Source: Bradyrhizobium genosp. SA-3 (GTDB lineage: Bacteria > Pseudomonadota > Alphaproteobacteria > Rhizobiales > Xanthobacteraceae). From it: DNA of 64,000 bases. The translations under genes and the position numbers were made by a program. The notes beneath the pieces are model-generated. The model searched no databases. It saw only the letters and a list, made by a program, of their open reading frames with translations, and had not been told where the DNA came from. This document shows, one piece after another, positions 53,221-56,053 of the stretch (the stretch's first letter is position 1; the number at the start of each line of letters is the position of its first letter). The stretch spans positions 1-64,000 of the forward strand of contig NZ_PSRT01000022.1 in the NCBI RefSeq assembly GCF_004212635.1, in the 5' to 3' direction.

Positions 53221-54000
53221 TCACCGGGCAGTCCAGCCGCCATCTACGGAGATTGCGGTGCCCGTAATCTGGTCTGCCGCGGCGGAGCACAGGAACGCGA
53301 CTGTGCCTCCAAGCTGCTCCGGAGAGGCAAAATCCAGAGACGGCTGCTTCTCGGACAGGAGCTCTTCGGCGGCTTCCTTTTGAGTGATGCCGCGTTGCGC
53401 CGCGATGTCGCTGATCTGCTTTTCGACCAGCGGCGTTCGCACCCAGCCGGGACAAACCGCATTGCAGGTCACGCCGCTTCCGGCGGTCTCGAGGCCAACC
53501 ACCTTGGTCAGACCGACCAGCCCGTGCTTGGCCGCGACATAGGCGGCCTTGTGGGTTGAAGCGACAAGGCCGTGCGCGGAGGCGATGTTGACGATCCGCC
53601 CCCAGCGTTGCTTTTTCATCTGCGGCACCGCTGCCGCAATGCCATGGAACGCGGCTGACAGATTGATGCCGAGGATTGCGTCCCACTTGGTCGCGGGGAA
53701 TTCTTCCACCGGCGCCGTGAACTGGATGCCAGCATTGTTCACCAGGATGTCGAGGCGTCCGAATTTCTCGACCGTCGAGGCAATCAATCCGCGCACGGCG
53801 TCTCCCTTCGACATGTCGGCGCCGTCGTAGACGGCACGCATGCCGTGGTCGCGTTCGATGCCCTTGCGAATCGCCTCGATCTCGCCGGCATCGCCGAAGC
53901 CGTTCAACACCAGATCGGCGCCGAGCCTTGCCAGTTCTCTGGCGATCCCCAGCCCAATACCGCTGGTCGATCCGGTGACGATCGCTACCTTGCCCCTCAT
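53221..54000 (-). CDS. bdhA: D-3-hydroxybutyrate dehydrogenase
   Basis: The 259-residue short-chain dehydrogenase has TGSTSGIGLGIA (cofactor loop), NNAG, the catalytic Ser in NIASAHGLVAS and YVAAKHG. The lid segment VEKQISDIAAQRGI with its Gln and Lys residues is characteristic of D-3-hydroxybutyrate dehydrogenase. It oxidises D-3-hydroxybutyrate, the monomer of polyhydroxybutyrate, to acetoacetate with NAD. Downstream of it are efflux genes, and upstream a patatin and acetoacetate decarboxylase on the same strand. Confidence 0.92.
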   Translation of the reverse strand: MRGKVAIVTGSTSGIGLGIARELARLGADLVLNGFGDAGEIEAIRKGIERDHGMRAVYDGADMSKGDAVRGLIASTVEKFGRLDILVNNAGIQFTAPVEEFPATKWDAILGINLSAAFHGIAAAVPQMKKQRWGRIVNIASAHGLVASTHKAAYVAAKHGLVGLTKVVGLETAGSGVTCNAVCPGWVRTPLVEKQISDIAAQRGITQKEAAEELLSEKQPSLDFASPEQLGGTVAFLCSAAADQITGTAISVDGGWTAR

Positions 54001-54045
54001 GAGAATTCCTTTCGATGCTTTGAGAGATGAAAATCTGCCGGGAGC

Positions 54046-55221
54046 TCAATCGCGGCGATGAACGTCATGGGTGATGATGCCAAGTTCCGGTGACGGCGGG
54101 TCCAGACGGCTTGGATCGGCCAATGTGCGGCGGATGTCGTCCAACCCGCTCTGCCAATGTGCGCGCATCGCGCTCAGTCCGAATTCGTAGTCCCTGGAAT
54201 GACCCTCGTGGAGTTTGGTCTGATAGATCAAGTGGACGATGTTGTAGGAGCGATGGCGGGCCATCTCCGCGATCGCGCGGATTTCAGGATCGTCCTTGGC
54301 GCTTTCCGGCAGCTTCGCAATTGTCCGCTGCAACGCCTGGCGCATCTTCTGCATCCGCAGCGCCTGGTCCGTGACGGCGCGTGTGCGGCTCGAATACTGG
54401 ATGTCCTTCTGCCGGCTCGACACTTCCATCATGTCGTAGGGAACGCGGCCCCTGGCCGACCAGAGATCGATCTGGAATGTCAGCGTGTCACACGGCTCGC
54501 CGGACAACACCCGGGAAAGAGGCGTATTGGACACCACGCCGCCATCCCAGTAGTGCTCGCCCTCAATTTCGACGGCGGGGAATCCAGGCGGCAGCGCGCC
54601 GGACGCCATAAAATGCTTCGGCCCCAGCCGGCGTTCGGCGGTGTCGAAATAGGTCAGGTTGCCGGTGCGAACGTTGACCGCGCCGACGCTGACGCGCACT
54701 TCACTCGAGTTCAACCGATCGAAGTCGACGAGCCGCTCGAGCGTTTGGTGCAATGGTGCCGTGTCGTAGAAGCTGGTTGCGGCATCGCCCGAGAACGGTG
54801 ACCAGAGCGGCGACGGGAAGCGCGGCTTGAAGAAGCCGGGCTGACCCTGGACCAGGGCCCTCGTCGCCGCCATCGCGTTGCGCACCGACTTGATGTCGAA
54901 CGCAAAGGGCAAGGCATTGGCCAACCCTTCGCCGGCGGGCCACTCGATCGAACGGGCACAGATGGTCTCCCAGAACTCGCGCAGCCGTGCCACGCGTTCG
55001 GCTTCCGGCGAGCCGGCGATGATGGCGGCATTGAGTGCGCCGATCGAAATGCCGGCCAGCAAGTTCGGCCGGATACCGGCCTCGTGCAGGCCCTCGTAGA
55101 CACCGGCCTGATAGGCCCCCAGCGCTCCGCCACCCTGCAGCACCAGGGCGACGACATCGTATGGCAGCGGCTTGGCCTGCGGCGTAACAGAACTGGATTG
55201 CTCGCGCATCACGTTCAACAT
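54046..55221 (-). CDS. patatin-like phospholipase/acyl hydrolase (DUF3734 type)
   Basis: The 391-residue protein has the patatin elements: glycine-rich oxyanion loop LQGGGALGAYQAGV near residue 28, nucleophile Ser in GISIGALNAAI (G-x-S-x-G) and catalytic Asp in WDGGVVSNTPL near 215. A C-terminal DUF3734-like part (RSYNIVHLIYQTKLHEGHSRDYEFG) follows. It would hydrolyse acyl esters. Its position between 3-hydroxybutyrate dehydrogenase and acetoacetate decarboxylase genes suggests it acts on polyhydroxybutyrate or its oligomers, but a phospholipase role is equally possible. ATG 55221 is chosen; the frame extends into the neighbouring gene. Confidence 0.87.
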   Translation of the reverse strand: MLNVMREQSSSVTPQAKPLPYDVVALVLQGGGALGAYQAGVYEGLHEAGIRPNLLAGISIGALNAAIIAGSPEAERVARLREFWETICARSIEWPAGEGLANALPFAFDIKSVRNAMAATRALVQGQPGFFKPRFPSPLWSPFSGDAATSFYDTAPLHQTLERLVDFDRLNSSEVRVSVGAVNVRTGNLTYFDTAERRLGPKHFMASGALPPGFPAVEIEGEHYWDGGVVSNTPLSRVLSGEPCDTLTFQIDLWSARGRVPYDMMEVSSRQKDIQYSSRTRAVTDQALRMQKMRQALQRTIAKLPESAKDDPEIRAIAEMARHRSYNIVHLIYQTKLHEGHSRDYEFGLSAMRAHWQSGLDDIRRTLADPSRLDPPSPELGIITHDVHRRD

Positions 55222-55252
55222 TTTGAAACTCCGATATTTTGAATGACCTCGA

Positions 55253-56053
55253 TCAACCCGCATTCGTCTCGGCCAGGATTCCGGACCGCGCCCCGTGGCG
55301 CCGTACCGTCTCGCCCGGGGCCAGATAATCGTGGACCACGGTGCCAAGCCCGAGGGTGAGGTCGGCGACGATGTGCTTGGCCGACAGGACCTGAAGCACT
55401 GGTAGCTCGGCGACGGGAGCTAGCGCATGCGAACACAGATCCAGCGCAGCCGGACCGGTCCAGGCGCCTTTCACGGTGATGTCTTCAAGGTGGTAGCGCA
55501 CCAGTTCGCAGATGCGCGCCGTGCCGTCGACGTCGGGGATGATCTTGAGCAGGAAGTTGGGGGCCGCGAGCTTCCTGGCTTCGGCAGCCGCCTCGAGCGT
55601 GCGATGCTTATACCCCATGGTGCCGGTGGCGACGCGAACCGAACCGTAGTTCAAGGTTCCGACCAAGGTGTCGATCTCGACGGCGAGCTTCGGCTGCGCC
55701 AGCTTCTTGGGAAAGCCCCAAATTTCACGCCCGCCTGCAATGGGCGGATGATCGTTGAGGAACATCTGGTGGGTGAAGCTGCCGGCTTCGCCGTGGTAGG
55801 ACACCGGAATGACCTGACCGCTCTCGGTGTAGTCGCCGAAGCCGGTTGAGTCCGGCATGCGGATGAACTCGTAGTTCACGACCGGCTCGGTGAGCTCAAG
55901 CGGTGCCGGCACCAACCGTCGCAGCGCCTCGGGGTCGGTCCGGTATTGGATGATGAAATATTCGCGGTTGACGAAGCGGTAGGGGCCGGGTGGAAAGGCC
56001 GGGTTGGCCAGCGGCATGGCGAACGCCGTCGCGCGCACGGTCTCGTGTTTCAT
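55253..56053 (-). CDS. adc: acetoacetate decarboxylase
   Basis: The 266-residue protein matches acetoacetate decarboxylase: YRFVNREYFIIQYRTDPEALRRLVP, then NYEFIRMPDSTGFGDYTESGQ and GREIWGFPKKLAQPKL. The first Lys of the PKK pair is the Schiff-base residue. It converts acetoacetate to acetone and CO2. The length is typical (about 245-270). The start at 56053 gives MKHETVRATAFAMPLANPAFPPGPY; the frame runs on to 56131. It lies 31 bases before the patatin gene, so one operon is likely. Confidence 0.92.
   Translation of the reverse strand: MKHETVRATAFAMPLANPAFPPGPYRFVNREYFIIQYRTDPEALRRLVPAPLELTEPVVNYEFIRMPDSTGFGDYTESGQVIPVSYHGEAGSFTHQMFLNDHPPIAGGREIWGFPKKLAQPKLAVEIDTLVGTLNYGSVRVATGTMGYKHRTLEAAAEARKLAAPNFLLKIIPDVDGTARICELVRYHLEDITVKGAWTGPAALDLCSHALAPVAELPVLQVLSAKHIVADLTLGLGTVVHDYLAPGETVRRHGARSGILAETNAG

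What the first reader, a model, noticed from the sequence alone, without database searches (positions are those of the whole stretch)
53221..56053. Possible polyhydroxybutyrate-to-acetone operon
D-3-hydroxybutyrate dehydrogenase, a patatin acyl hydrolase and acetoacetate decarboxylase are co-directional with short gaps. Hydrolysis of the polymer or its oligomers by the patatin, oxidation to acetoacetate and decarboxylation to acetone would form a complete overflow route. The EmrAB-like pump downstream and the flavoprotein upstream could belong to it. Acetone production has not, to my knowledge, been assigned to such a unit in Bradyrhizobium.
Basis: inference. Interest (0 to 1): 0.6.

Follow-up and report, generated by a model that had tools for sequence, protein, structure and literature searches.

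The report
Conserved hydroxybutyrate-to-acetone gene module
Three neighbouring bacterial genes that look able to turn a stored polyester, or another source of 3-hydroxybutyrate, into acetone form a module found together in many bacteria; the last two steps are well supported, the polymer-cutting first step is not proven, and a sister locus in a soybean partner was already published.

Summary
On the minus strand, acetoacetate decarboxylase (ADC, 55253-56053), a DUF3734 patatin (54046-55221) and 3-hydroxybutyrate dehydrogenase (BDH, 53221-54000) are packed with 31 and 45 bp gaps, between an NADH-dehydrogenase-like flavoprotein and EmrAB-like genes. The linkage is not chance: in an unselected 190-genome class sample, 18 of 23 near-complete DUF3734 loci have BDH and/or ADC within 5 kb (about 0.08 and 0.06 expected). 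In 57 loci selected by similarity, ADC is within 4 kb in 30 and BDH in 39; neither was found at 4-8 kb. Gene order reshuffles repeatedly.

BDH and ADC chemistry (3-hydroxybutyrate to acetoacetate to acetone) is supported at family level. That the patatin supplies 3-hydroxybutyrate from PHB is the best reading but unproven; solved relatives are lipid hydrolases.

Acetone had already been assigned to such a unit in Bradyrhizobium: Takeshima 2013 (PMC4070704) assigned ADC and BDH of genistein-induced locus BjG30, beside an RND pump, to PHB-to-acetone. Its 'hypothetical' blr7027 is, judged by its primers, a DUF3734 patatin. The window is another lineage with a different regulator and pump and an added flavoprotein. 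Pump coupling as a general rule was tested and not supported.

The parts
56128..57336 (-). FAD/NAD(P) pyridine-nucleotide oxidoreductase, 402 aa, most like type II NADH:quinone oxidoreductases; first gene of the inferred operon
   Evidence: PF07992 7.5e-48; best solved relatives 4nwz 5e-27 (that it is an NDH-2 is recalled), 9mqy 'NADH:ubiquinone reductase (non-electrogenic)', 9pxk and 5na1 'NADH dehydrogenase-like'; no NCBIfam model over its cut-off among the best 25 shown; co-directional upstream of ADC in 17 of 17 window-type relatives
55253..56053 (-). acetoacetate decarboxylase (ADC), 266 aa
   Evidence: PF06314 9.7e-91, NF002614 439 bits; 3bgt 1.1e-114; active-site motifs present (roles recalled)
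54046..55221 (-). patatin-fold acyl hydrolase with DUF3734 domain, 391 aa; N-terminus does not read like a signal peptide (by eye, no predictor run)
   Evidence: PF12536 7.3e-35, PF01734 9.4e-32; conserved motifs; model mean pLDDT 81.5; nearest solved folds CapV, PlpD, patatin
53221..54000 (-). D-3-hydroxybutyrate dehydrogenase (BDH), 259 aa
   Evidence: TIGR01963 339.5 bits, over cut-off; 1wmb 1.1e-119; nine recalled catalytic/substrate positions kept
52147..53193 (-). EmrA-like membrane-fusion protein
   Evidence: PF16576 and PF13437 over cut-off; TIGR00998 6.3e-72 but 242 bits, below that model's cut-off of 391
50360..52150 (-). EmrB-like DHA2 family efflux permease
   Evidence: TIGR00711 235.1 bits, cut-off 230.2
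58188..59969 (-). adenylate/guanylate cyclase-domain protein with TPR-like repeats; possible regulator, about 850 bp upstream
   Evidence: PF00211 over cut-off, several TPR families; homologues in loci L079, L082 and L150 and an annotated cyclase gene near the Microvirga terrae module
60324..62281 (-). two AraC-family regulators (60324-61355 and 61334-62281); possible regulators
   Evidence: PF12833; in one sequence cluster with genes upstream of the flavoprotein in Bradyrhizobium relatives, three of which were scanned and are AraC-type

Best explanation
A 3-hydroxybutyrate-disposal module. The DUF3734 patatin hydrolyses an intracellular ester, most likely poly-3-hydroxybutyrate granules or their oligomers, to 3-hydroxybutyrate (inferred). 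BDH oxidises this to acetoacetate with formation of NADH (family-level evidence). ADC decarboxylates acetoacetate to acetone and CO2, consuming a proton and pulling the BDH step forward without CoA or ATP (family-level evidence for the enzyme; the benefit is inferred). The NDH-2-like flavoprotein re-oxidises the NADH into the respiratory chain (inferred from kinship and synteny). In Bradyrhizobium the module often shares its operon with a drug-efflux pump and is probably switched on by a stress or plant signal, as its sister locus BjG30 is by genistein (inferred from the published locus).
For: Family and residue evidence for BDH and ADC. Linkage: 18 of 23 near-complete DUF3734 loci in an unselected 190-genome class sample have BDH (14) and/or ADC (6) within 5 kb, about 0.08 and 0.06 expected (28 of the 29 listed places used, 5 fragments set aside as not near complete). 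In 57 loci with 8 kb on each side, selected by similarity, ADC within 4 kb in 30 and BDH in 39, none of either found at 4-8 kb. All 3 BDH matches over cut-off found in the own genome sit by DUF3734 patatins (only 13 of 125 first-look candidates were scored there). Gene order changes at least 34 times on a quick 120-row patatin tree, with two BDH subfamilies. All 21 DUF3734 genomes have a PhaC_N match at E<=0.001 (one weak, 1.4e-4) against 118 of 190 overall; Fisher p=2.4e-5, or 5e-4 without the weak one. Other patatin-BDH pairings: Haloferax PhaZh1/BdhA (passages); a Halorarius plasmid, where the SDR scores 216 bits, under the BDH cut-off of 307; Legionella bdhA-patD mutant defective in PHB breakdown (passage). 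blr7027 of BjG30 is a DUF3734 patatin: its primers translate to VYNIVHL and TFDLEH and match the DUF3734 patatin gene of locus L183 with 0 and 1 mismatches.
Against: No activity on PHB is known to me for any DUF3734 protein; the library search for DUF3734 found no paper. Nearest solved folds are lipid hydrolases, TM about 0.4-0.5. 5 of 23 near-complete class-sample loci have neither BDH nor ADC; in Achromobacter/Bordetella the patatin instead lies by a DUF4136 gene and an RND pump. The organism also has PF06850 PHB depolymerase matches, as do 18 of 21 DUF3734 genomes, so the patatin is not needed for PHB breakdown as such. The phaZh1 knockout had no significant effect on PHA mobilisation in vivo.
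Confidence: 0.5

Rival explanations
1. The patatin is a phospholipase or lysophospholipase that remodels membranes under chemical stress. BDH and ADC dispose of ketone bodies coming from released fatty acids or elsewhere, and PHB is not its substrate.
For: Nearest solved structures are CapV/CapE, PlpD, patatin and, lower, iPLA2-beta; Achromobacter/Bordetella relatives sit beside an RND pump without BDH or ADC; the Thioclava plasmid locus has a phospholipase D-like gene close by.
Against: Repeated pairing specifically with 3-hydroxybutyrate dehydrogenase of two subfamilies, which acts on the PHB monomer; all 21 DUF3734 genomes in the sample have a PHA synthase match, one of them weak.
Confidence: 0.3
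2. The patatin is a thioesterase or short-acyl esterase that frees 3-hydroxybutyrate or acetoacetate from CoA or other conjugates, so that the module is a ketone-forming overflow route from acetyl-CoA that bypasses the polymer.
For: BDH and ADC need the free acids; ADC-BDH pairs without a DUF3734 patatin also occur, 8 of the 10 pairs in the class sample, so the two enzymes have uses without it.
Against: No thioesterase family matched the patatin at E<=0.001 in Pfam or NCBIfam; I recall no patatin thioesterase in this context.
Confidence: 0.12
3. The genes are neighbours by chance or by inherited order without shared function.
For: Short gaps alone prove nothing in a compact bacterial genome.
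Against: Enrichment far above background in an unselected sample and none found in control zones; repeated reshuffling with retained content.
Confidence: 0.03

Closest known systems
BjG30 locus of Bradyrhizobium japonicum USDA110 (bll7017-bll7033), Takeshima et al. 2013, PMC4070704
   Same: Patatin (blr7027, identified here from its primers), ADC (blr7028) and BDH (blr7029) co-directional; near a drug-efflux pump; PHB-to-acetone proposed in print
   Different: Order PAT-ADC-BDH; RND pump and TetR instead of EmrAB and AraC; no flavoprotein homologue labelled in the stretches fetched of the related loci L183, L185 and L189; their patatins sit in another clade
PhaZh1-BdhA of Haloferax mediterranei (Liu 2015, not held; passages in PMC11205408, PMC4823750 and PMC7137286)
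   Same: Patatin next to a 3HB dehydrogenase gene; the patatin hydrolyses native PHA granules in vitro
   Different: Archaeal; no ADC mentioned in the passages seen; PhaZh1 itself was not compared; a Halorarius patatin of this layout lacks DUF3734 and is 27% identical over 266 columns
Legionella pneumophila bdhA-patD operon (Aurass 2009, not held; passage in PMC4549902)
   Same: BDH and patD in one operon (patD being patatin-like is recalled); [quoted passage not shown]
   Different: No ADC in the operon's name; its patatin subfamily was not tested here

Membership tests
D-3-hydroxybutyrate dehydrogenase (TIGR01963/NF009093) | score over the curated cut-off | tested here: met
   339.5 vs 307.05 and 339.7 vs 258 bits
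D-3-hydroxybutyrate dehydrogenase | catalytic and substrate residues of the P. fragi enzyme (positions recalled) | tested here: met
   9 of 9 positions kept
Acetoacetate decarboxylase (PF06314/NF002614) | score over cut-off and lysine pair in GFPKK (Schiff-base role recalled) | tested here: met
   304 vs 29.8 and 439 vs 150 bits; motif starts at residue 114
DUF3734 patatin (PF01734 + PF12536) | both domains over cut-off, Ser and Asp motifs of the dyad | tested here: met
Intracellular PHB depolymerase, classical type (PF06850) | PHB_depo_C domain | tested here: not met
   the window patatin matches only PF01734 and PF12536
PhaZh1-type patatin PHA depolymerase | close sequence kinship to PhaZh1 | tested here: inconclusive
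   PhaZh1 itself was not obtained; a haloarchaeal patatin of the same gene layout is 27% identical and lacks DUF3734
PHB depolymerase (function) | hydrolysis of native PHB granules or 3HB oligomers | not testable with these tools
   needs an enzyme assay
BjG30-type genistein-inducible module | PAT, ADC and BDH co-directional | tested here: met
   order differs, content the same
BjG30-type genistein-inducible module | TetR regulator and RND pump at the locus | tested here: not met
   the window neighbours scanned are AraC, cyclase and EmrAB-like genes
BjG30-type genistein-inducible module | induction by genistein | not testable with these tools
   needs expression data
Type II NADH dehydrogenase | kinship to NDH-2 enzymes and quinone reduction | tested here: inconclusive
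   best solved relatives are NDH-2-like, but no NCBIfam model over cut-off among the best 25 shown; quinone reduction not testable here

The most novel reading that the evidence does not exclude
DUF3734 patatins are an unrecognised family of intracellular PHB or 3HB-oligomer hydrolases dedicated to a 3-hydroxybutyrate to acetone route. In Bradyrhizobium at least three different drug pumps have been joined to this module (two EmrAB kinds and an RND pump), giving stress-inducible units in which stored polymer supplies NADH, via an NDH-2-like enzyme where present, and proton consumption to sustain proton-driven efflux of plant toxicants. A general pump link outside particular lineages is not supported (7 of 30 patatin clusters near versus 10 of 30 far).
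Probability: 0.25. Interest if true: 0.75.

Novelty: new variant of a known kind. Interest (0 to 1): 0.48.

Why it matters
If the patatin is shown to feed BDH, a widespread domain of unknown function gains a role. The published but unexplained genistein response of soybean rhizobia (and acetone in nodules, as cited there) would become a defined three-step pathway testable with single-gene deletions. It would also explain why the 3-hydroxybutyrate dehydrogenase genes found in this genome lie beside such patatins.

Tried and rejected
Pump coupling as a general rule: rejected as general. Of 57 loci, pump genes lie within 4 kb in 16 and at 4-8 kb in 10; after clustering the patatins at 75% identity, 7 of 30 clusters near against 10 of 30 far. 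It is a feature of certain lineages only.

Acetone re-use through acetone carboxylase: PF08882 gave no match in the own genome, but the family rang in no control genome either, so absence is not shown. Acetoacetyl-CoA synthetase TIGR01217: best own match 273 bits, below its cut-off of 520.9; other routes for acetoacetate were not searched.

Promoter and terminator scan: uninformative. A first ORF-overlap gene caller missed many genes in this G+C-rich DNA (the patatin cluster held 56 of 80 loci) and was replaced by a codon-score caller, which still split or missed some genes; no patatin was called in 3 of the 80 loci (L123, L128, L138). Counts therefore rest on tblastn. In one search loci L080 and L190 are labelled without BDH because it lies beyond 3 kb; one search shows it. 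The 80 loci are the best of 579 confirmed stretches in a capped list, chosen by similarity to the window, so they are not an unbiased sample; the 190-genome sample is drawn evenly from the class. In one search at most 13 candidates per genome were scored, so BDH genes can be missed there.

A common origin of the flavoprotein half of the fusion on Xanthobacter pXAUT01 with the window's flavoprotein is weakly supported: 26% over 223 columns, 5e-5.

Labels that I had first given by size and order (RND, adaptor, outer-membrane and AraC clusters) were checked afterwards on examples by Pfam and held.
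Full report
What is there. The BDH passes the curated cut-offs of TIGR01963 and NF009093, is closest to solved 1wmb, and keeps nine of nine positions that I recall as catalytic or substrate-binding. The ADC passes its cut-offs and is closest to 3bgt. The middle protein is a patatin-fold hydrolase with the DUF3734 domain. Upstream, 74 bp away, is a flavoprotein whose best solved relatives are NDH-2-like, though no NCBIfam model among the best 25 shown reached its cut-off. Downstream, 27 bp away, are EmrA- and EmrB-like genes. A cyclase/TPR gene and two AraC genes lie further upstream on the same strand. Cotranscription is inferred from spacing.

Is the grouping real? In an unselected class sample of 190 genomes I searched DUF3734 (21 genomes), ADC (35) and BDH (83 over cut-off; at most 13 candidates per genome scored). 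Of 28 DUF3734 places used (of 29 listed), 23 are near complete; 14 of these have BDH, 6 ADC and 18 either within 5 kb, against 0.08 and 0.06 expected from the genes' density. 5 of 23 have neither. The own genome has four DUF3734 genes; its three BDH matches over cut-off each lie beside one, and the fourth patatin is divergent from an ADC that reads in two frames. In 80 further loci selected by similarity, 66 have at least 2.5 kb on each side: co-directional ADC within 3 kb in 35, BDH in 42, either in 47, both in 30. In the 57 with 8 kb on each side, ADC within 4 kb in 30 and BDH in 39, and none of either found at 4-8 kb.

The order is not frozen: ADC-PAT-BDH in Bradyrhizobium, Reyranella and Microvirga terrae; PAT-ADC-BDH in Rhizobium, Mesorhizobium, other Microvirga, Thioclava (with two genes in between) and other Bradyrhizobium loci; ADC-BDH-PAT in Burkholderia and relatives; BDH-ADC-PAT in Dyella and Rhodanobacter. 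The BDH belongs to either of two subfamilies; the 7 examples scanned, of both, pass TIGR01963. On a quick 120-row patatin tree the order changes at least 34 times, ADC linkage 16 and BDH linkage 16 times, truncated loci not counted. The tree holds long branches and open forks, so the numbers are approximate. Content retained while order reshuffles argues for shared function.

The window type. In 17 of 17 relatives of the window type examined (L077 and L193 have identical patatins) the flavoprotein, ADC, patatin and BDH are co-directional. A pump is in line in 12 of 17: six have the window's EmrAB kind after BDH, six have a distantly related EmrAB (EmrA 41-43%, EmrB 26-28% identical) between patatin and BDH; in Microvirga terrae the window-type pump lies about 8 kb upstream in the opposite direction. 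Some relatives carry a gene between flavoprotein and ADC that the window lacks; the example scanned is a metallo-beta-lactamase-fold protein.

The literature changes the reading. PMC4070704 (abstract, Results, Discussion, figure legends and tables seen) describes locus BjG30 of B. japonicum USDA110: RND pump, TetR regulators, blr7027 'hypothetical', ADC blr7028 and BDH blr7029. All but five of its 17 genes rise 24.6- to 213.9-fold 30 min after genistein; four followed over time, blr7027 and blr7029 among them, rise from 5 min. The authors assign blr7028-7029 to PHB-to-acetone, find lower nodule weight per plant in the deletion of blr7026-7029 (nodule number and nitrogenase activity unchanged; complementation failed), and suggest that decarboxylation balances protons taken in by the pump. 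They cite acetone and ADC in soybean nodules. The blr7027 primers translate to VYNIVHL and TFDLEH, both fitting DUF3734 patatin motifs, and match the DUF3734 patatin gene of locus L183 with 0 and 1 mismatches. The blr7028 primers fall in its ADC (3 and 1 mismatches) and the blr7029 primers in its BDH (4 and 4); in a locus without patatin, L178, the best chance matches of the blr7027 primers have 5 and 6 mismatches. Primers of blr7018, blr7030 and bll7032 found no good site in L183. The bll7019 primers fall in the RND-like gene of the adjoining stretch L198 with 0 and 1 mismatches. So the published response includes this patatin, which the paper calls hypothetical. The window patatin is in another clade: a second, separately assembled version. 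My library searches on patatin with ADC and BDH, patatin with PHB terms, DUF3734, PhaZh1 and blr7027/BjG30 listed no paper that I could see placing a DUF3734 patatin in this pathway; the one paper holding both patatin and ADC, PMC5158114, names them in different organisms (passages). I saw listings of most hits only, and the library lacks most subscription papers.

What does the patatin do? Against: nearest solved folds are lipid hydrolases; the haloarchaeal patatin examined is another subfamily; most such genomes already have PF06850 depolymerases (18 of 21); some lineages have the patatin without BDH or ADC. I hold the PHB or oligomer reading at about one half.

Pump coupling as a general principle is not supported. 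It remains a lineage feature of Bradyrhizobium and of Achromobacter/Bordetella, where the neighbours are an adaptor, an AcrB-family transporter and an outer-membrane efflux protein (example scanned).

Verdict: a real, conserved module; last two steps supported at family level, first step inferred; the Bradyrhizobium-acetone idea already in print for a sister locus. New here, as far as I could search: the patatin as a recurrent third partner, the identity of blr7027, and the flavoprotein/EmrAB version in the window.

Noticed in passing
own genome G000:C105 (L064, about 6669-7417): A fourth DUF3734 patatin is divergent from an ADC gene that reads in two frames and is only about 50% identical to the window's ADC; gene decay or an assembly error.
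   Followed up: partly
own genome G000:C12:73619-74225: A PF06850 PHB depolymerase match is split into two overlapping pieces in different open frames.
   Followed up: no
L070 (Xanthobacter autotrophicus Py2 plasmid pXAUT01) 5669-7966: Natural fusion of a pyridine-nucleotide flavoprotein with a DUF3734 patatin, suggesting a redox partner for the patatin.
   Followed up: partly
L083, L085, L086, L088-L091 (Achromobacter/Bordetella): DUF3734 patatin followed by an RND-type pump operon in all seven, without BDH or ADC; preceded in six by a gene of one cluster (DUF4136 in the one scanned), the seventh locus starting at the patatin.
   Followed up: partly
L075 6136-7083 and relatives: Metallo-beta-lactamase-fold protein inserted between flavoprotein and ADC in several Bradyrhizobium; possible oligomer hydrolase or lactonase.
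   Followed up: no
L178-L182, L184, L186-L188 (Bradyrhizobium): A third ADC lineage, 67-71% identical, with neither patatin nor BDH labelled in the 19.5 kb fetched; neighbour sizes recall an amino-acid ABC transporter (not tested).
   Followed up: no
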